Source of the DNA: Sulfurovum sp.
Lineage (GTDB): Bacteria > Campylobacterota > Campylobacteria > Campylobacterales > Sulfurovaceae
Direction: 5' to 3'
NCBI GenBank assembly: GCA_026991605.1
Contig: JALXBG010000147.1
Location: forward strand, 1 to 38,414
Length of the DNA: 38,414 nucleotides
Shown: one piece after another, positions 1 through 11,201 of the stretch
Layout: every line of letters begins with the position of its first letter
Numbering within the stretch: the first letter of the stretch is position 1
The notes under the pieces: model-generated
The model's input: the letters and a program-made list of their open reading frames with translations, nothing else
The model's database searches: none
Told to the model about the DNA's origin: nothing
Program-made: the position numbers and the translations under genes

Positions 1-548
1 ACTTCTATCTCTATGGCGTTACTTGGACAGGCTTGTACACAAGCAGGGGTTTGCCCAACTTCGAGTTTGTCTGCACACATATGACATTTGGTCACGATAC
101 CTCGTTCTTTGTTGAACGTAGGCACTTCGTAAGGACAGTTCCATGTGCAGTATTGACACCCGATACAGCTAGGGTCATCGTGCCAGACGATACCATTGTC
201 AAATTTGATGTAAGACTCTGTAGGACAGCCTATGAGACACTCAGGCTCTATACAGTGGTTACAAGACATAGAGTTAAAAAGTTGCAGGGTATCTGGGAAT
301 GCTCCCATCTCCATCTCTCCTACACGACGCCACTTAATGTCATCTGGGTTTGCATTTTGCTCATTACAAGCGACTTCACAACAGTGACAGCCTACACAGG
401 CAGTCGCATCAAAATGAAAACGATACTGCTCTCCCTCACCTAGGTCGGGTAGGTCTATGGAGTAGTTACCACACTGCATACCTGTGTTGGTTTTGTGGTT
501 AATGAAGTCTGATAGGGGTGTGTTTTGCGTTAGGGGTTCTACTGGCAT
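1..548 (-). CDS. DmsB/NrfC-type four-cluster 4Fe-4S electron-transfer subunit, 3' end cut by window
   Basis: The first 182 codons are visible, starting at the ATG complementary to 546-548. Sixteen cysteines lie in four ferredoxin-type groups: C51/54/57/61, C96/99/104/108, C128/131/134/138 and C155/158/170/174. This is the pattern of iron-sulfur subunits that pass electrons to molybdopterin oxidoreductases (DmsB, NrfC, NarH-like). There is no signal peptide, so it is probably cytoplasmic. It lies downstream of the nitrite reductase on the same strand, 128 bp away. I infer that it feeds an assimilatory nitrate reductase whose catalytic subunit would lie beyond the left edge, but that gene is not seen. 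The stop codon is outside the window. An open frame on the opposite strand here is a shadow. Confidence 0.85.
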   Translation of the reverse strand, partial: MPVEPLTQNTPLSDFINHKTNTGMQCGNYSIDLPDLGEGEQYRFHFDATACVGCHCCEVACNEQNANPDDIKWRRVGEMEMGAFPDTLQLFNSMSCNHCIEPECLIGCPTESYIKFDNGIVWHDDPSCIGCQYCTWNCPYEVPTFNKERGIVTKCHMCADKLEVGQTPACVQACPSNAIEIE

Positions 549-569
549 AGATATTCCATTGATTGTTTT

Positions 570-662
570 TGTAGGGTGGGTTTTCTAACCCACCACGAAT
601 GTAGTGAAATATAAATATTAATTGTAAAATAATTGTTGGTGGGTTGGAAAACCCACCCTACA
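570..662. repeat. REP/BIME-like paired hairpin, family 1
   Basis: Two 26-nt arms, 570-595 and 637-662, are inverted copies matching at 25 of 26 positions, separated by 41 AT-rich bases. Each arm also folds on itself: GGTGGGTT pairs with AACCCACC across a 4-nt loop (ttct in one, ggaa in the other). This is the architecture of REP doublets. It lies between two co-oriented genes, so it may act as an RNA-stabilising or attenuating structure (inference). No REP-associated transposase gene is in the window. Confidence 0.8.
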
Positions 663-676
663 GGTATATTCATGAT

Positions 677-2596
677 TTAAACCTCTTTCAATGCCACTAA
701 TAACTCAGAGAAAACAGAGGCTCTTTCACTCTTTTTTTCGTGTGTCATGTTGTAGATGACTTCTGAGAGTTTTGCAGGTACTTTTGGATTGAGTTTGGTG
801 ACTTCATCTCTTTTTATCTTTCTTGGACGTACTTTGCTTGCTTCTAATCCAACGACTGATTCAAATCTTTTCTCTCCTGTAAGAAGTTTAAAGAGTTGTA
901 GTCCAAAAGTAAAGAGTTCGTACTCTTCTCTCTTGCTACTTTTAGGCTCTTTTTCTAGTTCAAACATTACATCTAAGCCTAACTTGTCATTAATGATATA
1001 GTTTATTTTTGTAAAAAATGCCAAGGCTTGAAAGCTATAGTTACGTGATAAAAATCTATCATCAAAGGCTTCATAGGTTTCCCCTCTTTGTTTGTATGCT
1101 GCATAAGTTTTGAGTAAGTATTTCACGTGGTGTTTTGCTTCAGTGATAGGTAGTGCTTTATGCAGTGTATGTGCTTCTTTTGCTTCACGGGTGATTTTAC
1201 CACCTAAATAAATGTGTACACCGTCAACACGGGTACCATCACTTAACTTTGCTTTACATCCTTCAAACCCAATATCTGCTATGCCATGCACGCCACACCC
1301 TTTAGGACAGGCAGACCAGTTCATGCGTACATTGGCATTTTCTATGGCAACTTCAGAGTTGAGAAAGTGTGCCATTTCAATGGCATCTGGTTTGTTAGGT
1401 ATGACCCCAAAACTACATGTAGCTGTACCTGCACAGGCTATCATGTCTGCAAAGTAAAGATTGTTAAACTTTGCATAATTTGAGACAACATCACTTGCTT
1501 CTAAAGCAGATAGATTTTCTGTAGGAACATTGACAATATAGAGGTTTTGATCATAGGTAAGTCTAATGTTTCCATCTCCATAAGTGTTAGCGCTTTGGGC
1601 TGCTGCCATCATGTCAGAGCCTGTAAAAATCCCTGATGGGATGATAATCTTGTAGTTCATCTTTCCATTGCGTCCGAGTACTTTGTTTGAGCCAAGAGCG
1701 ATGTTTTGTGACTGTACCATCGTTGTACCTGCAGTTGCAAATGTAAGCCCAGACTCTTTTTTAATCGCATCGATAAGTGGATCCATACCTATGTCGTTAA
1801 TGAGAAAGATGAGACGGTTTTTGTTACGGTTGTCTCTGTATCCATAGGTTTTAAAGAGCTCAAGGAGCGCTTTGTAAAAACGAGGGGCTTCTTCTACGGT
1901 AACAAAAAGGTTTGCATCTTTTGCTTGCATACCTACACGCGCACCAAGATAGATATTGAATCCAAAGATACCCTCTTTCTGTGCCAATACAAAGTTACAG
2001 TCATGCCCAAAGATGTTACAAGAGTTAGAAAGAGAACCGATGATACCTGTGTTAAATTTACGAGGTAAAACAGAAATCCATTCAGGATTTTCTAAAAAGA
2101 CATCCTGCAATTTTTCTATGATGGGCATAGTCTCAATGATGTTGTCATAAGCGATGCCATCGAGTGGATCAGTCACAATGTTACGTAAGTTATCTACCCC
2201 TGTTTGAAACGTAGTAAGGTCTACTTCTTTGAGGGATGCCAAGACTTTAGCGATGTCTGCTATCTGTAGGTAACGAAGCTCTACTTGCATACGTGTGGTG
2301 ATGTCAATATAGTCATTACCATACTCTTTTGCTACTTCACCAATACGCTTTGCTTGTTCATACGTTAATTGACCTGCAGGTACACGTACACGAAGCATAA
2401 AGTCTTCACCCTTATCAAAGAGTCCAAAACATTTTAAAAAGTATCCACTATCTTCAGGTGCAAGGTTTTCATATCCACCTGCTGCTATCTCTTCTAGTTT
2501 TGCATAGACATCCATAGGTATTTTGAGTGCTTTGGTGGTTTCAACTTTATTTACTTTTTTACTTCTTGCTTCTAAGGCTTTTTCTAAAATAGTCAT
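677..2596 (-). CDS. nirA: Siroheme nitrite reductase (NirA family) with kinase-C-lobe-like C-terminal extension
   Basis: This 639-residue protein has the two-repeat sulfite/nitrite reductase ferredoxin-like fold. The siroheme/4Fe-4S cysteines are C388 and C394 (Cx5C) and C430 and C434 (Cx3C, in SACPKGCGVH). It should reduce nitrite to ammonium in the cytoplasm, with ferredoxin or a similar donor. Family members usually end near residue 510-520. Here about 120 more residues follow, and residues 558-639 resemble helices F to I of a Ser/Thr kinase, aligning with the kinase encoded at 4298-5929. No catalytic kinase motifs (HRD, DFG, VAIK) are present in the tail. It is divergent from narK. Sulfite reductase is the main alternative, but the nitrate transporter next door favours nitrite. 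Confidence 0.88.
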   Translation of the reverse strand: MTILEKALEARSKKVNKVETTKALKIPMDVYAKLEEIAAGGYENLAPEDSGYFLKCFGLFDKGEDFMLRVRVPAGQLTYEQAKRIGEVAKEYGNDYIDITTRMQVELRYLQIADIAKVLASLKEVDLTTFQTGVDNLRNIVTDPLDGIAYDNIIETMPIIEKLQDVFLENPEWISVLPRKFNTGIIGSLSNSCNIFGHDCNFVLAQKEGIFGFNIYLGARVGMQAKDANLFVTVEEAPRFYKALLELFKTYGYRDNRNKNRLIFLINDIGMDPLIDAIKKESGLTFATAGTTMVQSQNIALGSNKVLGRNGKMNYKIIIPSGIFTGSDMMAAAQSANTYGDGNIRLTYDQNLYIVNVPTENLSALEASDVVSNYAKFNNLYFADMIACAGTATCSFGVIPNKPDAIEMAHFLNSEVAIENANVRMNWSACPKGCGVHGIADIGFEGCKAKLSDGTRVDGVHIYLGGKITREAKEAHTLHKALPITEAKHHVKYLLKTYAAYKQRGETYEAFDDRFLSRNYSFQALAFFTKINYIINDKLGLDVMFELEKEPKSSKREEYELFTFGLQLFKLLTGEKRFESVVGLEASKVRPRKIKRDEVTKLNPKVPAKLSEVIYNMTHEKKSERASVFSELLVALKEV

Positions 2597-2859: not shown

Positions 2860-4140
2860 ATGGCAGGTTTTAAAGCACTCAAAGGGCAGGGACACGCACC
2901 TACACTCTTTGCAGCATTTTTATATTTTGATTTCTCATTTATGGTGTGGATTATGCTTGGTCCACTTGTGACTGAAATCAGTGAATCTTTAGCATCTCAT
3001 GGTGAAGTGCTCAATGCTAGTCAGCAGGCAACGCTTCTTTCTGTTCCTATACTTTCTGGTGCATTACTTCGTATTGTTCTCGGATTTGGTGTCGATAAAC
3101 TTGGGGCAAAATTGACTGCACTCATTGCACAGTCTATTGTTATCTCTGTACTATTTTATGCATACTTTAGAGGCGCAACCATTACCTATAATGAGCTTTT
3201 GGTCGTTGCACTTGGACTTGGATTTGCTGGGGCTTCATTTGCTGTAGCACTTCCACAGGCAGGGCAGTGGTATCCACCTAAACTCCAAGGTATTGTACTT
3301 GGTATCGCAGGAGCAGGGAATGTGGGTGTGGTTATTGATTTCTTGTTTGCTCCAAAAATCGCTGAAAAGTTTGGATGGGAAGCAGTCTTCTTAGTCGGTG
3401 GGGTACTCTCGTTACTTGTATTTGTGATGTATATGTTCTTGGCTAAAAATGCACCCGAGTCTGTGTATAAAGCAAGACCTAAAAAGTTAAGTGACTATTG
3501 GAAACTACTAAAAGACAGAGATTCATGGTGGTTTATGCTCTTTTATGCCGTAAGTTTTGGTGGATTTGTAGGCTTTGCCAACTACATGAAAGTCTATTTA
3601 ATGAACACCTATCAAGCGGACATGTCAGCATTTGGATTAGATGTATTTAATGAACCCAATGTAAAAGTCATCGCAGGGTACTTTGGGGCACTGACTATTT
3701 TTGCTGGGGCGATACTCCGTCCAGTTGGTGGCGGTGTAGCAGATAAAATGGGAGGGATAAAAGCCCTATATATTTTCTTTGGTGTTGTCTTGGTTTTGGT
3801 TGCTTTAAGTGGTCTTGTTCATCTTCCATTCTGGGTAGCGATAGCTGTTCTTTTTGTTATTATGGCAAGTCTTGGTATGGCAAACGGCGCAGTATTCCAG
3901 CTAGTACCTCAAAGATTTGGTAAAGATATCGGTATTATGACAGGACTTATCGGTGCTGCTGGTGGTATTGGTGGTACATTCCTAGTGAAAACACTTGGAT
4001 GGGCTAAAGGCACATTTGACAGTTACTCTATGGGATTCTTTATTTTTGCAGGACTTGTATTACTTGCTATTGCTGCTATCTCTTTGGTAAAAACAAGATG
4101 GAGAACGACGTGGGGTGTACAGTCTGGCGGTATGATATAA
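2860..4140 (+). CDS. narK: NarK/NasA-type nitrate/nitrite MFS transporter
   Basis: This 426-residue protein has about 12 predicted membrane helices. It carries the two glycine-rich nitrate-signature motifs of the NNP family of the major facilitator superfamily: GAGNVGVVI in the first half and GAAGGIGGTF in the second. It should import nitrate, or exchange nitrate and nitrite, across the inner membrane. It is divergent from the nitrite reductase and followed by the kinase-phosphatase gene, which supports an assimilatory role. The ATG follows an AAAGGA ribosome site. Confidence 0.93.
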   Translation: MAGFKALKGQGHAPTLFAAFLYFDFSFMVWIMLGPLVTEISESLASHGEVLNASQQATLLSVPILSGALLRIVLGFGVDKLGAKLTALIAQSIVISVLFYAYFRGATITYNELLVVALGLGFAGASFAVALPQAGQWYPPKLQGIVLGIAGAGNVGVVIDFLFAPKIAEKFGWEAVFLVGGVLSLLVFVMYMFLAKNAPESVYKARPKKLSDYWKLLKDRDSWWFMLFYAVSFGGFVGFANYMKVYLMNTYQADMSAFGLDVFNEPNVKVIAGYFGALTIFAGAILRPVGGGVADKMGGIKALYIFFGVVLVLVALSGLVHLPFWVAIAVLFVIMASLGMANGAVFQLVPQRFGKDIGIMTGLIGAAGGIGGTFLVKTLGWAKGTFDSYSMGFFIFAGLVLLAIAAISLVKTRWRTTWGVQSGGMI

Positions 4141-4149
4141 TAAAATATT

Positions 4150-4231
4150 GTAGGGGTGAACCCATGTGTTCGCCCTTCAAAGTGATTTATTAATCCAAAA
4201 ATTAAGGGTAAACACATGGGTTTACCCCTAC
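4150..4231. repeat. REP/BIME-like paired hairpin, family 2
   Basis: Arms 4150-4177 and 4204-4231 are inverted copies matching at 25 of 28 positions. Each also forms its own 8-bp hairpin: GGGTGAAC with GTTCGCCC in the left arm, GGGTAAAC with GTTTACCC in the right. The differences between arms are compensatory, so base pairing has been kept while sequence drifted. The element fills the narK-kinase gap and may separate their expression (inference). Confidence 0.8.
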
Positions 4232-4297
4232 GAGTAATGTTATTTTAAATTATGTCATAATCTTTATCACATAATTTAGAATATTAAAGGCTAACCC

Positions 4298-5929
4298 ATG
4301 TCCAAACAAAACATCGAAACTTCAGGTCTTACATTGGCAAAAGGTACACAGCTTCAAGGGGATGATTTTTTTGAAATCAAGGTGATGGATACCATTACTG
4401 TGGCTGTAGTATGTGATGGTGTAGGTTCTGCGATGCAAGGGGCAGAGGCAGCTAAGCGTACCTGTCATTTCTTGGTGCATTCTCTTAAAAATAGACCCAA
4501 GTCTTGGTCTATGGAAAAATCCATTAAACATTTTATTGAGAACATTAACCGTGTACTTTATATGGAGTCGATGGAGGACTATGAACGTGAAGAGTTGGTA
4601 ACGACATTGACGCTTGTGGTTATAGAAGGTGATAGACTCTATGGTGCCAACGTGGGTGACAGTCGCATCTACTTACAGAGAAACGGACAGCTTGCCCAAC
4701 TCTCCCATGACCATGCGATGGATGAAGAGGGTATGGAAAATGTGCTGACTTCTGCCATGGGACTTGAAGAGAATGTCTCGCCATACTATTTTGAAAATAA
4801 TTTACAATCAGGAGATCAGATACTTTTGTGTTCTGATGGACTCTATAATGAACTGACACAAAATGAGATAGCTGATGGTTTAATGATGGGGGCTTCCTTT
4901 TTAGTGAAAAAAGCCTCTAAAAAACATGATGATGACTTACCAGATGACACAACCGCTGTTGTCTTAGAGATAAAAGATCTAGATCCCCGTCTAAAGTTTA
5001 AACAATCAGACTTGATAGTGCAGGAGTACTATCAAGTTGGGGATGAAGTAGATGGATACGAACTCCTTAAACCACTCATTCAAAATAATCGTACGTGGTT
5101 GTGTGAAAAAAGAGGCTTAAAGTATGTCATAAAGTTTGTACCTTATGACGCGTTAGATGATGAGGTGATGCTGGATTTGTTTGTCAAAGAAGTATGGATG
5201 GCTAAGAGACTCAAAGCAGGCTTCTTCCCTAAAGCTGTAGTACCTAAAAACCGTACACACCGTTACTACATTATGGCATTTGTGGAGGGAAAGACACTCA
5301 AAGAGTTTACACAGAAAAAACCACTTTCTGTAGACCTCTCTGTTGAACTTGCCGTTTTTTTACTTAAAATGTCACAGTTTCTCATTAGACTCGATTTGTT
5401 GCATGGAGATATAAAACCAGAAAATATCATCGTTACCGAACGTAAAGGAAAACTTGTATTCAAGATGATAGATTTTGGAAGTATTACAGAGGCATATTCT
5501 AATGTTACACGTGCAGGAACACCTAGCTATCTAGCCCCAGAACGTTTTAGACAATCACCTGTCAATGAACAGACTGAAGTCTATGCCATAGGTGTTACAC
5601 TCTATGAAGCACTGACACAAAGGTATCCTTTTGGAGAGATAGAGCCTTTTCAAACGCCGAGTTTTGAAAAGAAGATAAAAGAGCCAACAAAGCTCAATCC
5701 CAAGATACCAAAATGGTTAGAGTCTGTAGTCTTACGCGCACTCGAAACGGACACAGACAAACGCTACCATAACTACTCAGAAATGCAGTATGAAGTCACA
5801 AATCCAGAGAAAGTAAAACCTTACTTTGATAAAGGCACTTCCTTTATAGAACGGAATGAAAAGATGGTCTATAAAGTTGGTTTTATTGTAATGTTTATAT
5901 TGAATATTTGTCAAATATTATTTAGGTGA
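4298..5929 (+). CDS. Bifunctional PP2C phosphatase-Ser/Thr protein kinase, membrane-anchored
   Basis: The 543 residues hold a PP2C phosphatase (about 1-228) and a Hanks-type kinase (about 252-505), with one C-terminal transmembrane helix (about 524-541). Phosphatase metal ligands are visible as D40 (CDGVGS), D121 (GDSR), D180 (CSDGL) and D217 (PDDTT). Kinase motifs are K279, E298, HGDIKPEN at 369-376, DFG at 392-394, APE at 413-415 and R489. The canonical glycine-rich loop is missing: residues 252-278 have no GxGxxG, so nucleotide binding may be altered. The order transporter-kinase next to nitrite reductase recalls nitrate assimilation clusters of some proteobacteria (from memory). It probably controls nitrate or nitrite assimilation by reversible phosphorylation; its target is unknown. 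Confidence 0.9.
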   Translation: MSKQNIETSGLTLAKGTQLQGDDFFEIKVMDTITVAVVCDGVGSAMQGAEAAKRTCHFLVHSLKNRPKSWSMEKSIKHFIENINRVLYMESMEDYEREELVTTLTLVVIEGDRLYGANVGDSRIYLQRNGQLAQLSHDHAMDEEGMENVLTSAMGLEENVSPYYFENNLQSGDQILLCSDGLYNELTQNEIADGLMMGASFLVKKASKKHDDDLPDDTTAVVLEIKDLDPRLKFKQSDLIVQEYYQVGDEVDGYELLKPLIQNNRTWLCEKRGLKYVIKFVPYDALDDEVMLDLFVKEVWMAKRLKAGFFPKAVVPKNRTHRYYIMAFVEGKTLKEFTQKKPLSVDLSVELAVFLLKMSQFLIRLDLLHGDIKPENIIVTERKGKLVFKMIDFGSITEAYSNVTRAGTPSYLAPERFRQSPVNEQTEVYAIGVTLYEALTQRYPFGEIEPFQTPSFEKKIKEPTKLNPKIPKWLESVVLRALETDTDKRYHNYSEMQYEVTNPEKVKPYFDKGTSFIERNEKMVYKVGFIVMFILNICQILFR

Positions 5930-6061: not shown

Positions 6062-7672
6062 ATGTTTAAGCAACTACTTACTAGTATCTTTGTACTTTCA
6101 ACTGTGACTACACTAGAAGCTAATATAGAACTAGATTATTTAAATGGGCTACGTATACAAACAGGTTTACCTCCTTTCTCTAGCCAAGCTCGTTTACAGA
6201 TAGCAGCAGAAAATCATTCTGCCTACATGCAAACAAACAATACATCGGGGCATGGAGAAGAAAGTAATGCTACAGACTACACGGGCGCATCTCCCTCACA
6301 AAGAGTACAATATGTAGGGTATGCATCTACTACGGTTTCTGAAAACGTCTCTTATGCTTCAAATGCAACCTTGTATACTTCTATAGATGGGTTGATGTCA
6401 GCTATATACCATCGTTTTGGTTTTTTGAGTCTTAATGTAGATGAGATAGGGATAGGTATAAGTAGTAATGAAAAATTTTACACTTATGACATGGGAAATT
6501 CAGTACTCAAAAACTTATGTATTGATGGGGTATACTCCGGTGGCTCGTATTATCTTCCTTGTAGTGATACTACAAAAAAAGTAGAATCTGAAAATTATCT
6601 TGCTAGAGCGGACGGTATTAAAAAAGCATCTCCTAAACTCATACTTTGGCCTCCAGCAGATGCAAATGACATACCTCCTGTATTTTATGAAGAGACTCCA
6701 GATCCATTACCTTCTCATGGTGTGACCGGATATCCTATCAGTGTAGAATTTAACAGTGAAAAGGTTACTTCCATCCCTACTGTATCTAGTTTCACTCTAA
6801 GTGATGTATCTGAGACACAATTAGATGACATAATACTTATGGAGAAAAGCAATGACCCAAATAAAAAGTTTAGTGACTATCAATTTGCATTATTTCCTAA
6901 AGAAAGACTAGAGTGGGGAAGTAAATATGACGTTGAATTTATCTATAATGATGGCACACAAAAAACTATAGGCTGGTGCTTTTCAACCCGTTCACTTAAA
7001 GGAACTGCTGATAGATTTTACCGTGTTGAGAATGATGGGAATATTGTATTGGATGTTGTGTCTGGTCAGTCATATGCTATATATATAGTACCTACTGACA
7101 GTAATGACAAGTTGGGAGGAGTAAATTATAGTACTACAACTGAAGTAAATTTTTCATATATTGATAACAATACATTTTATACGAAGCTTACAGCTAGTAG
7201 TGGTAATTATGTGAATTATACATTCTCAAATGGACAGAAAATAAAGCTCATCGTTGCCTCAAATGATACAGCTACCATTCCTTCACAAGCATTGTGTGCA
7301 TCCCAAAGTGATTTTGACAAGGATGGAATCATTGATATTATAGATACAGATGATGACAATGATGGTGTATTGGATGAAGAAGATGCTTTTCCTTTTGATA
7401 CAACAGAAAGTGTAGATACAGACGGTGATGGCATAGGTAATAATGCAGATACAGATGATGATAATGATGGTATTTCAGACAGAGATGAAATAGCCAATGG
7501 GCTAAACCCATTACTTGCCTCAGATGCACAAGCTGATTTTGATAATGATGGCTTCTCTAATAGTATAGAAATTTCCGTAGGTTCAGATATACTAGATGTA
7601 AATTCTAAACCAATTTGGACTCTTATTATAATGGGTGACTTAAGCATTTTAGTACCATCTTTTTCGATATAA
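6062..7672 (+). CDS. Secreted CAP/SCP-domain protein with thrombospondin-type-3-like calcium repeats
   Basis: I chose the ATG at 6062, preceded by GGAG with 7-8 nt spacing, because the signal peptide (MFKQLLTSIFVLSTVTTLEA) follows directly; the frame extends upstream to 5993. The mature N-terminal half has a CAP (SCP/PR-1) domain, recognised from LDYLNGLR, AAENHSAYM and SGHGE. The C-terminal 120 residues carry Asp-rich repeats such as DTDDDNDG and DTDGDG that bind calcium in thrombospondin type 3 modules. It is likely exported to the periplasm or surface. The last 17 residues are hydrophobic and unlike the repeats, so a late frameshift or anchor is possible. The gene converges with mltG, 36 bp away. 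Confidence 0.8.
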   Translation: MFKQLLTSIFVLSTVTTLEANIELDYLNGLRIQTGLPPFSSQARLQIAAENHSAYMQTNNTSGHGEESNATDYTGASPSQRVQYVGYASTTVSENVSYASNATLYTSIDGLMSAIYHRFGFLSLNVDEIGIGISSNEKFYTYDMGNSVLKNLCIDGVYSGGSYYLPCSDTTKKVESENYLARADGIKKASPKLILWPPADANDIPPVFYEETPDPLPSHGVTGYPISVEFNSEKVTSIPTVSSFTLSDVSETQLDDIILMEKSNDPNKKFSDYQFALFPKERLEWGSKYDVEFIYNDGTQKTIGWCFSTRSLKGTADRFYRVENDGNIVLDVVSGQSYAIYIVPTDSNDKLGGVNYSTTTEVNFSYIDNNTFYTKLTASSGNYVNYTFSNGQKIKLIVASNDTATIPSQALCASQSDFDKDGIIDIIDTDDDNDGVLDEEDAFPFDTTESVDTDGDGIGNNADTDDDNDGISDRDEIANGLNPLLASDAQADFDNDGFSNSIEISVGSDILDVNSKPIWTLIIMGDLSILVPSFSI

Positions 7673-7708
7673 AGTAACAAGTTTTATCTTACATGCCTAG
7701 TTAAAACC

Positions 7709-8662
7709 TTAGCGGGCTTTTTTAATGTTCTTTCTATGGGCTTTGTAGCTCTTTGTAAAGTCATGCACACCTTTAGCATTTTTCATAAAGTACAAATAGT
7801 CAGTTCTTGCTGGCTTAATAGCAGCTTTTATAGCATTTAAACTTACAGAACCAATAGGTGAAGGAGGAAGACCTTTGTATTTGTAGGTATTAAAACGGCT
7901 TGTATCATTTTTTATACGCTCGGGTGTTACTTTTATATGAGAATATTTACCATAATTGAGTGTACCATCCATCTGTAAACGCATGCCTTTTTTTAAACGA
8001 TTCATAATAACGGAAGAGACGATAGGCATCTCTGTCGCATTGGCTGCTTCCTTTTGGATAATAGATGCAATAGTAAGTACTTTTAGCCACTGTTTTTTAT
8101 CGTAAGTACCATAAATCTTTTTTGAAAGTGAACTATATTTTTTATTGGAAGCTTTGGTTAAAAACGCCATGAGGTGTTTTTCTCCTATACCATAGGGTAC
8201 ATGATATGTATCTGCATAGATACCAGCTTCAGGATATGTAGCAAATTGATTATAATATTGATTAAGTTTTGTTACATTAAGGTCTAGTTTTTTTGCGAGA
8301 GAGGCCAAGAAAAGTGTTTTGGTTTCTCCTGGGATAAGGGTTACTTTATGAATCATCGCTCTGGCATTGGTAAGTTTATAAAGAAAATCAATACGATTTA
8401 GTTGATTTCTACCCATAGATATCCACCCTGTTTTAGGGGTACCGAGTAAACGTAAAATATATGAATCTATAATGGAAAGTTGGTATCCCTGTTTATGGAG
8501 TTGTGCTATAATTGCATGAATAGAACCTTGGGGTACAAAAAGTGTTTTTGTGGTCTTGATGGGAAGTGTAGTATAAAAGGCAAAAGAGATGATTAAGACG
8601 AGTGCAATATTTTCTGCCCATGCCATCCATGTTCTGATACGAAATACACTCATTTTTTTCAT
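7709..8662 (-). CDS. mltG: Endolytic murein transglycosylase MltG (YceG family), copy 1
   Basis: The protein has a short cytoplasmic N-terminus, one membrane helix (AENIALVLIISFAFYTT), then the periplasmic YceG fold. The motif IIQKEAAN holds the catalytic glutamate, followed by LQMDGTLNYGKY, VTPERIK and GLPPSPIGSVS. It cleaves nascent glycan strands at the inner membrane and so sets strand length. The open frame reaches 8722. I prefer the ATG at 8662 or the one three codons on (8653), which follow AGGA. Any of these starts lies inside the divergent gene beginning at 8589. A second mltG is at 23731-24759. Confidence 0.9.
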   Translation of the reverse strand: MKKMSVFRIRTWMAWAENIALVLIISFAFYTTLPIKTTKTLFVPQGSIHAIIAQLHKQGYQLSIIDSYILRLLGTPKTGWISMGRNQLNRIDFLYKLTNARAMIHKVTLIPGETKTLFLASLAKKLDLNVTKLNQYYNQFATYPEAGIYADTYHVPYGIGEKHLMAFLTKASNKKYSSLSKKIYGTYDKKQWLKVLTIASIIQKEAANATEMPIVSSVIMNRLKKGMRLQMDGTLNYGKYSHIKVTPERIKNDTSRFNTYKYKGLPPSPIGSVSLNAIKAAIKPARTDYLYFMKNAKGVHDFTKSYKAHRKNIKKAR

Positions 8663-11201
8663 TGTCCTTTTTATCGTACTGTTTGCATGGCTCAGTGTAG
8701 GTGTAGAGATAGATACTTTCAAAGCATCAGGCTACCGTGTTGATGGATTATACATCAAACTTGATAAAAAGCTTACACTTAAGGCTGATAAAGTCGTTAT
8801 CCCTCAGCGTAAAGAAAATCCTTCCTTTGACCGTATTGATGAAACACTTGAGAGTATTAAATATCTTTTGACTTTCTTTGAACATATTGATTTGAAAAAA
8901 ATTGTATTTGATAACAACATTTTGGGTATTTATTTTTATGACAATATCCTTCAGTTAAGCAGTAAGGACTATCTGGTACGTGGTAATGTGCATAGAGAGG
9001 GTAAGATGCTCATAGGTGAGATACCTATACTTCTGCTAAAAGATCAGAATGTGACGATGAGGGGTACGTTTAGGTATGACTTGCATGAAGATGTATTGAC
9101 GACAAAGGGAAAGTTTGCACTCGATCGTTTTATTGGTGATTTTGAAGCAAGTAAAATAGAAGATGAAATTACATTTTCTCTAAAGAGTGAGCCATTCTCT
9201 GACTTGAAAGAAATTGTCGATAGATTTCCAATGATACCTGCAGTGAGAAGCTGGCTACTCGATAAAGTACAGGCAAAAAATTATCAACTACTTTCACTCA
9301 CAGGTGGGGGTACGATTGTTGATAAAGCCTTTAAAATTAATCTTGATCTACTGAAAGGAAAAGTACGTTTTAGTGATGTCAGTATTTATTTTAAAGAGGG
9401 GCTTGATCCTGTTTTAGCACCAAGTTTTGTGTTGAGTTATACGAATAAAAGCGGACTTTTCTTTGATTTGAAAAAACCTCGTTACCGAGGGCGTAACCTC
9501 GATGGTACTACAGTTTCCATTGTCAATTTACGAGATTATAATACTACATTAAAACTTGATTTGCATATGCGAAGCCCTATCGATAAGACGATGCATAAGA
9601 TATTGTCTGCATATGACATACCTATGCCTGTAATGCAAGAGCAGGGAGATGTCAATGCAACGATTAGACTAGATATTCCTCTGAAACATAAAGGCATCAC
9701 TGTTCTAACAGATCTGACGCTGGGTAAAGGTAAGATTGTTGTCAATCATATCCCATTTTTTGTACAAAGTGGTTATGTATCATATGCAGATGGACTAGTT
9801 CATTTGAACGATATTGTATTATCTCATAGCACGTATAATGGCATACTTGATGGTGATATTGATTTACATAAATCAACAGCATTTATGCTTTTTGATATGA
9901 AATATTTAACATTGAAAGCCAAAGATGAAGTACTCATCTCCTTAAAAAATGAAAAAATACCTGTAACACTAAATTATAAAGATTATATAGATATTAGCAT
10001 ACCAAAATATACTTTGAAACTTTTAAGTAGAAAAGATAAAACGATACTGACTATTGATGACTTGAACAAAGTAAAACAGTGTATTAGTGATGCTATCCCC
10101 ATAGAAAATGGTGGTAATCTAAAGATAAAAACAAAAGAGTTTAAAACCTATACTTTCAAAGGAGTAATGAAACGTGAATCGTGTTTTTTATATGAAAAAG
10201 AGGATGTATGTTTTGTCAATGTTCCTTACCATGGAACGGTAACACAAAATGATATCCAGTTTTATGCTTTTAATGATAGATTATATTATCAAAAATCAAA
10301 GTCTCGTCTTATTTTTAATGGTATTAATATTGATTTAAAAAGATTTTTAGCACAAGAGAATAAAAGTCTAAAGAAGCGTAAAAAAGTAAAAAGTGGTACG
10401 AAATTAATCATTATAGGAAAGAAAAGTCATTTGAGATATGATGATTATAGTCTGAATACAGACAGTTATGATGTAGAAGTGAAAAACAATGGTGACATTA
10501 AAGCCATCGGAAGTACAGATGGTGACATTGTCAAGTTTACAAAAGTGAATGATATCTTAACACTGCAGGCGTTACGCATTAAAGATAAAGTTTTACAGCC
10601 ACTTATTAATTTTTATGGTTTGCAAGGCGGCCGTTACTCTATCACAAAAACAGGTGTACCTTCGAAGGTGATGAAAGGTGAAATTATTGTTGAAGGGGGA
10701 GTGATGAAAGGATTTAAAGCCTATAACAATACTTTAGCTTTTATAAATACTATCCCAGCGTTGGCTACACTACACAAACCAGGATATTCTAGTGAAGGGT
10801 TTACCATTGAATCTGGTGTCATTGAGTATCGTATGATCAAAACAGATAAAATTGTATTTGACTCTATCTACATTAAAGGTGATTCTGCAACGATTGTTGG
10901 CAAAGGTGAAGTGGATTTAAAGAAAAAAACAATCAATGTTGAATTGGGAATACAAGTTGCACGTGAATTGGGAAAAGTAGTGGGGAGTATTCCACTTGTA
11001 GGCTATATTTTGGTAGGAAAAGATAAAAGTGTAACAGTGGGGCTTAAAATTATGGGAAGTTTGGAGAAACCAGATGTATCTGTTACTGCTGCAAAAGATA
11101 TACTCTCTTATCCTTTAGATATTATCAAACGTACTATTGAAGCACCGGGGCAACTTTTAACCCCAAAACAGCCAAAATTGAAAACTGACAATAAAAAATA
11201 G
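8589..11201 (+). CDS. Large AsmA/YhdP-like (DUF3971) envelope protein
   Basis: The protein has 870 residues: an N-terminal membrane helix (about 17-38), then a long beta-rich periplasmic region with no catalytic motif. The C-terminal 230 residues resemble the AsmA-like domain of YhdP: alternating strands, GGVMKGFKAYNNTLAFINTI, then VGSIPLVGYILVGKDKS. Relatives bridge the inner and outer membranes and are implicated in phospholipid transport. The ATG is preceded by AAAGG with 8-nt spacing, and no other start keeps the membrane helix. Its first 65-74 bases overlap the 5' end of mltG on the opposite strand. The next gene follows 14 bp downstream and is probably cotranscribed. Confidence 0.75.
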   Translation: MIKTSAIFSAHAIHVLIRNTLIFFIVLFIVLFAWLSVGVEIDTFKASGYRVDGLYIKLDKKLTLKADKVVIPQRKENPSFDRIDETLESIKYLLTFFEHIDLKKIVFDNNILGIYFYDNILQLSSKDYLVRGNVHREGKMLIGEIPILLLKDQNVTMRGTFRYDLHEDVLTTKGKFALDRFIGDFEASKIEDEITFSLKSEPFSDLKEIVDRFPMIPAVRSWLLDKVQAKNYQLLSLTGGGTIVDKAFKINLDLLKGKVRFSDVSIYFKEGLDPVLAPSFVLSYTNKSGLFFDLKKPRYRGRNLDGTTVSIVNLRDYNTTLKLDLHMRSPIDKTMHKILSAYDIPMPVMQEQGDVNATIRLDIPLKHKGITVLTDLTLGKGKIVVNHIPFFVQSGYVSYADGLVHLNDIVLSHSTYNGILDGDIDLHKSTAFMLFDMKYLTLKAKDEVLISLKNEKIPVTLNYKDYIDISIPKYTLKLLSRKDKTILTIDDLNKVKQCISDAIPIENGGNLKIKTKEFKTYTFKGVMKRESCFLYEKEDVCFVNVPYHGTVTQNDIQFYAFNDRLYYQKSKSRLIFNGINIDLKRFLAQENKSLKKRKKVKSGTKLIIIGKKSHLRYDDYSLNTDSYDVEVKNNGDIKAIGSTDGDIVKFTKVNDILTLQALRIKDKVLQPLINFYGLQGGRYSITKTGVPSKVMKGEIIVEGGVMKGFKAYNNTLAFINTIPALATLHKPGYSSEGFTIESGVIEYRMIKTDKIVFDSIYIKGDSATIVGKGEVDLKKKTINVELGIQVARELGKVVGSIPLVGYILVGKDKSVTVGLKIMGSLEKPDVSVTAAKDILSYPLDIIKRTIEAPGQLLTPKQPKLKTDNKK

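What the first reader, a model, noticed from the sequence alone, without database searches (positions are those of the whole stretch)
677..926. Nitrite reductase carries a C-terminal segment homologous to the C-lobe of the adjacent kinase
Residues 560-574 of the reductase match residues 427-441 of the kinase in register (helix F: E.F.FGL.LF.LLTG versus E.YAIGVTLYEALT). From reductase T600 and kinase T464 the two align without gaps for 37 residues with 12 identities: shared TKLNPK, P, L, V, then R625/R489 and SE at 630-631/494-495. The spacing between the blocks is 27 versus 24 residues. The tail has no catalytic kinase motif, so it looks like a docking or decoy half-kinase fused to the metabolic enzyme next to a kinase-phosphatase gene. 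I know of no described case. It suggests direct coupling of nitrite reductase to the signalling protein, for example lobe swapping or substrate mimicry.
Basis: partly seen in the sequence, partly recalled or inferred. Interest (0 to 1): 0.88.

Follow-up and report, generated by a model that had tools for sequence, protein, structure and literature searches.

The report
Nitrite reductase with half-kinase tail
In Sulfurovum and many related bacteria the nitrite-assimilating enzyme ends in half of a signalling protein kinase, copied long ago from the kinase gene that travels with the nitrate importer; the half cannot catalyse but evolution keeps it, and its job is not yet known.

Summary
Residues ~548-637 of this ferredoxin-type nitrite reductase (NirA) are homologous to the C-lobe, helices F to I, of the neighbouring PP2C-kinase fusion. 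The stated identities check out exactly (12 of 37). A profile of 70 tails finds the neighbouring kinases at E 1e-10 to 1e-14 and nothing else comparable among 2,107 ORFs. The predicted full-length structure splits into NirA (9-526, Z 45.9) and a kinase C-lobe (527-639, Z 8.8). A shared derived residue (Glu for the usual Asp at the start of helix F) traces the tail to this kinase family, not to kinases in general.

The tail is ancestral to NirA in this phylum, was lost at least twice, and is under strong purifying selection (dN/dS about 0.09). It lacks the N-lobe, catalytic loop, DFG and activation segment, so it cannot be a kinase.

The docking/decoy reading is only partly supported. Tails persist without relaxation in genomes lacking this kinase, and ten genomes keep the kinase with a tail-less NirA. 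The kinase's strict partner is NarK (72 of 73 genomes), not NirA. Best reading: an exapted, non-catalytic interaction or stability domain of NirA.

The parts
677..2596 (-). nirA, ferredoxin-type siroheme nitrite reductase with C-terminal half-kinase tail (639 aa)
   Evidence: NIR_SIR, NIR_SIR_ferr; PRK09566 E 3e-104, below its curated cut-off; Mtb NirA Z 45.9 over residues 9-526
686..955 (-). kinase C-lobe half (residues 548-637: helices F, short G region, H, I); no catalytic loop, DFG, activation segment or N-lobe
956..1054 (-). joining segment (residues 515-547) with a helix at 522-538; overlaps kinase helix E in the structural alignment but has no significant sequence match to it
2860..4140 (+). 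NarK-family nitrate/nitrite MFS transporter; co-occurs with the kinase in 72 of 73 genomes
4298..5929 (+). PP2C phosphatase - Ser/Thr kinase fusion (type A), source family of the tail; catalytic residues conserved; hydrophobic C-terminal helix
5540..5800 (+). kinase C-lobe segment (residues 415-501) homologous to the NirA tail
3..548 (-). 4Fe-4S ferredoxin-like subunit of the nas cluster, cut by the window edge
   Evidence: the same kind of gene lies in the nas cluster of L116, L119, L120

Best explanation
A partial copy of the nitrate-cluster PP2C-kinase gene, covering the C-lobe from about the APE motif through helix I, was fused to nirA in a common ancestor of the Campylobacterota lineages that assimilate nitrate. 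It survives as a folded, non-catalytic accessory domain. Inferred mechanism: it packs against the reductase core and serves NirA itself, as a stability, self-association or partner-binding surface built on a reused kinase scaffold. Contact with the NarK-linked kinase is optional, not the reason it is kept. Shown: homology, origin from this kinase family, absence of catalytic parts, ancient origin, purifying selection, persistence without the kinase. Inferred: packing on the core and the kinase-independent role.
For: Homology. Fold: tail alone pLDDT 92.9, full NirA pLDDT 92.5, split into NirA and kinase C-lobe. Origin: Glu at helix F start in 56/56 type A kinases and invariant in tails, Asp in 7/7 type B and 17/18 other kinases; tail-profile score median 47 bits for type A against at most 31 for others. 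Age: the tail is present in nearly all NirA lineages and absent in one nested clade plus a second small group and one long branch. Constraint: median dN/dS 0.09 for tail, 0.07 for core, 307 pairs. Kinase independence: tails without type A or B kinase in eight genomes, with tail/core branch ratios like the rest (1.64 against 1.73, p 0.40); no Pkinase match at E 1e-3 in G096, G088, G292 and G472. Packing: pTM 0.89 for the full model exceeds the ~0.80 I would expect if the tail's position were undefined (my estimate).
Against: No coordinates or PAE were available, so packing on the core rests on pTM alone. The tail evolves about twice as fast as the core, which fits a peripheral module. Tail-bearing genomes have a type A or B kinase more often (60/65) than tail-less ones (10/16; Fisher p 0.006, not corrected for phylogeny), and tail and kinase distances share extra correlation after removing the core (r 0.27); both favour some coupling. 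Most kinase-less genomes are draft assemblies. The relaxation test uses only eight lineages.
Confidence: 0.5

Rival explanations
1. Docking: the tail mimics the kinase C-lobe and binds the NarK-linked kinase (or its own C-lobe partner), coupling nitrite reduction to control of nitrate uptake.
For: Tail comes from exactly this kinase family; genes are adjacent, in some genomes convergent with overlapping ends (L142 kinase 6488-8131, NirA 8124-10028); 60 of 65 tail-bearing genomes have a PP2C-kinase of type A or B; partial tail-kinase correlation r 0.27 against 0.14 for the PP2C part.
Against: Tail kept without relaxation in genomes lacking the kinase; kinase kept with tail-less NirA in ten genomes; the kinase's invariant GEIEPFQ loop after helix F is not kept in the tail; the kinase's obligate partner is NarK.
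Confidence: 0.3
2. Shared-partner module: the tail binds a membrane partner also used by the kinase C-lobe (NarK or FNT transporter), placing NirA next to the importer to capture nitrite.
For: Kinases of this kind sit beside NarK or FNT transporters both here and in other phyla; tail-bearing genomes without NarK include six with the type B kinase, which is FNT-linked where neighbours were read.
Against: Tail persists in genomes with neither NarK nor a PP2C-kinase (G096, G292, G313, G392, G472); tail-less NirA occurs with NarK in ten genomes. No binding data.
Confidence: 0.13
3. Neutral relic of an old fusion with no function.
For: Two or more independent losses; a lone tail remnant in a genome without NirA (G030).
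Against: dN/dS about 0.09, intact reading frames and confident folding across deeply diverged families.
Confidence: 0.05
4. Chance resemblance of a helical bundle, not homology.
For: The window tail alone is below the Pfam gathering score; Z of 7 to 9 alone is not decisive for helical folds.
Against: Profile E-values of 1e-12 and 6e-8, identical spacing of invariant E..E....G and conserved R....SE in both families.
Confidence: 0.02

Closest known systems
Ferredoxin-dependent assimilatory nitrite reductase NirA (spinach/tobacco NiR; M. tuberculosis NirA, PDB 1zj8)
   Same: Residues 9-526: siroheme/4Fe-4S fold, Z 45.9, 508 residues aligned
   Different: Known members end there; NirA hits in plasmids of other phyla end at residue ~508-533. 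Here ~113 residues with a kinase C-lobe follow.
Bacterial Hanks-type Ser/Thr kinases (PknB of M. tuberculosis, Stk1/PknB of S. aureus)
   Same: Tail matches the C-lobe, helices F, H, I, by sequence (E 6e-8) and predicted fold (Z 8.8)
   Different: No N-lobe, no catalytic loop, DFG, activation loop or conserved APE; only about a third of a kinase domain.
PP2C-kinase fusions ('bifunctional protein-serine/threonine kinase/phosphatase') of nitrate and nitrite transporter loci
   Same: Tail derives from the type A subfamily, shared Glu at helix F
   Different: Tail is one lobe only, on a metabolic enzyme; the parent is a full kinase with phosphatase and hydrophobic C-terminus.
Pseudokinases (e.g. 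MLKL, STRADalpha; general knowledge and abstracts)
   Same: Kinase-derived, non-catalytic, kept by selection
   Different: Pseudokinases keep both lobes; this is a lone C-lobe fragment.

Membership tests
NirA ferredoxin-nitrite reductase | Two ferredoxin-like half domains and two NIR_SIR 4Fe-4S/siroheme domains | tested here: met
   Pfam E 7e-32 and 1e-35, two stretches each; Z 45.9 to Mtb NirA
NirA ferredoxin-nitrite reductase | Conserved cysteines binding the 4Fe-4S/siroheme | tested here: met
   C388, C394, C430, C434 invariant in 82 sequences
Protein kinase (active) | N-lobe with ATP-binding lysine, catalytic loop, DFG | tested here: not met
   Absent from the tail; alignment covers only C-lobe positions
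Kinase C-lobe homology | Helices F, H, I with conserved sequence pattern | tested here: met
Pseudokinase | Complete two-lobed kinase fold lacking catalytic residues | tested here: not met
   Single lobe only
Type A NarK-linked PP2C-kinase, as source of the tail | Glu in place of Asp at helix F start | tested here: met
   Invariant E560 in the tail alignment; E in 56/56 type A, D in 7/7 type B and 17/18 others
Obligate docking partner of the kinase | Tail depends on presence of the kinase | tested here: not met
   Tail without kinase and kinase without tail both found
Obligate docking partner of the kinase | Physical binding | not testable with these tools
   No complex prediction or binding data

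The most novel reading that the evidence does not exclude
A lone kinase C-lobe, copied from the NarK-linked kinase-phosphatase, works as a built-in adaptor on nitrite reductase that pairs with the full kinase, so that nitrite reduction directly sets the phosphorylation of the nitrate importer.
Probability: 0.22. Interest if true: 0.85.

Novelty: new variant of a known kind. Interest (0 to 1): 0.62.

Why it matters
It would be an unusual case of a signalling fold reduced to one lobe and built permanently into a metabolic enzyme across much of a phylum. It raises a testable question: what a kinase C-lobe can do on its own. The strict pairing of the parent kinase with NarK (72 of 73 genomes) also gives a concrete target for an uncharacterised kinase family found in nitrate and nitrite uptake loci of several phyla.

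Tried and rejected
Chance similarity: rejected by shuffles and profiles. Generic kinase origin or type B (FNT-linked) origin: rejected by the helix-F Glu and by scores. Helix 522-538 as kinase helix E: no sequence support, although the model overlays it there. A recent local fusion in this genome: rejected, the tail is ancestral. Strict dependence on the kinase: rejected. Neutral relic: rejected by dN/dS. Foldseek alone gave no match with E below 0.001 for the tail; the VIA second look and the sequence profiles were needed. Literature searches found no description of the fusion or of the kinase's function. One search and one look-up failed on a disallowed character.

Full report
WHAT WAS CHECKED. 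The window lies in a draft Sulfurovum-like genome (closest named relatives). The reductase gene is 677-2596 on the minus strand and encodes 639 residues. The adjacent genes are a NarK-family transporter (2860-4140) and a PP2C phosphatase-kinase fusion (4298-5929).

IS IT CHANCE? No. The local alignment score is 90 against 35 +/- 5.5 for 2,000 shuffles, maximum 71; the BLASTP pair E-value is 4e-7. The Pfam kinase model alone gives only E 0.05 on the single tail, so relatives were needed. A profile of 70 tails, searched against 2,107 ORFs from 130 loci, returned the neighbouring kinases at E 1e-10 to 1e-14 as its only strong hits apart from NirA. Profile-profile comparison with the kinase family gives E 1e-12 over 90 columns. 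Against all solved structures the tail profile's listed hits are protein kinases, always over the same C-lobe segment, best E 6e-8.

WHAT THE TAIL IS. Homology runs from about residue 548 to 637 and covers the kinase stretch from the APE motif to helix I. The ATP-binding lobe, catalytic loop, DFG motif and activation segment are missing. The tail folds confidently on its own (pLDDT 92.9). In a model of the whole protein (pLDDT 92.5, pTM 0.89), residues 9-526 match M. tuberculosis NirA (Z 45.9) and residues 527-639 match the PknB C-lobe (Z 8.8, 3.0 A over 79 residues). A Z of 8.8 is moderate for a helical piece; it agrees with, and does not carry, the sequence evidence. If the tail's position relative to the core were undefined I would expect a pTM near 0.80; the value of 0.89 suggests a defined position. 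That is an inference, because no error matrix was available.

WHERE IT CAME FROM. Kinases normally have Asp at the start of helix F. The type A kinases that sit with NarK have Glu there in 56 of 56 cases; the tails also have Glu invariantly; the FNT-linked type B kinases (7 of 7) and other kinases (17 of 18) have Asp. Tail-profile scores are 34-56 bits for type A and at most 31 bits for the rest. The tail was therefore derived from the type A family.

AGE AND SELECTION. In a tree of NirA cores, tail-bearing sequences span all the deep branches. One well-supported tail-less clade is nested among them, with a second small tail-less group inside another genus and one tail-less long branch, G358. 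The simplest reading is one ancient gain and at least two losses. dN/dS is about 0.09 for the tail and 0.07 for the core. In plasmid collections of other phyla, NirA matches end at about residue 508-533, so the tail may be confined to Campylobacterota; other phyla were not searched systematically.

DOES IT GO WITH THE KINASE? In 397 genomes of the phylum, 65 have tailed NirA: 54 with the type A kinase, 6 with only type B, 5 with neither. Sixteen have tail-less NirA: 10 with type A, 6 with neither. The excess is modest (60/65 against 10/16, p 0.006) and not corrected for shared ancestry. By contrast the type A kinase and NarK co-occur in 72 of 73 genomes; the one exception is a decayed NarK. 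Together with the relatives sample, eight tail-bearing genomes lack any type A or B kinase (G082, G088, G093, G096, G098, G292, G313, G392). Four tail-bearing genomes have no Pkinase match at E 1e-3 (G088, G096, G292, G472). Tail-to-core branch ratios in the eight (median 1.64) equal those with the kinase (1.73; p 0.40). So the tail does not need the kinase. A partial correlation of tail and kinase distances after removing the core is 0.27, against 0.14 for the PP2C part; the permutation p of 0.0005 ignores phylogeny, so this is a hint only.

HOW IT MOST LIKELY WORKS. I favour an exapted accessory domain of NirA acting in stability, self-association or partner binding, kept for NirA's own sake (0.5). 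Docking to the kinase comes next (0.3), then a shared membrane partner (0.13). A relic (0.05) and chance (0.02) are disfavoured.

NOVELTY. I found no description of a lone kinase C-lobe fused to a siroheme reductase. Non-catalytic kinase relatives are well known, so I rate it a new variant of a known kind.

Noticed in passing
window 2860-5929; genomes: Type A PP2C-kinase and NarK co-occur in 72 of 73 genomes (kinase never without NarK; the single NarK without kinase, G412, is truncated with stops). The kinase probably controls nitrate uptake.
   Followed up: partly
L094 4256-5980, L113 11200-12921, L135 6089-7810, L134 11490-13223: A second, divergent PP2C-kinase (type B, ~26% identical) sits beside or near an FNT nitrite transporter and NirA; plasmid relatives lie next to FNT and cyanase genes in Acinetobacter and next to NarK and FNT genes in Azospirillum.
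   Followed up: partly
L131 9214-9540 (G030:C27): A 108-aa ORF that is only the tail (helices F to I), 51% identical to the tail of L114, in a Sulfurovum genome with no NirA and no type A or B kinase: a remnant or a free-standing half-kinase.
   Followed up: partly
window 570-662 and 4150-4231: Long imperfect inverted repeats (31-nt arms, each holding a perfect GTGGGTTNNNNAACCCAC palindrome; 28-nt arms) in the intergenic regions after nirA and after narK; they look like palindromic intergenic elements or terminators.
   Followed up: no
L142 6488-8131 and 8124-10028: In one genome (G279) the kinase and nirA are convergent and overlap by 8 bases at their 3' ends.
   Followed up: no
L199, L200, L201 (G308, G470, G388): A second, independent tail loss: these NirA proteins keep the joining helix but end before helix F.
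   Followed up: partly
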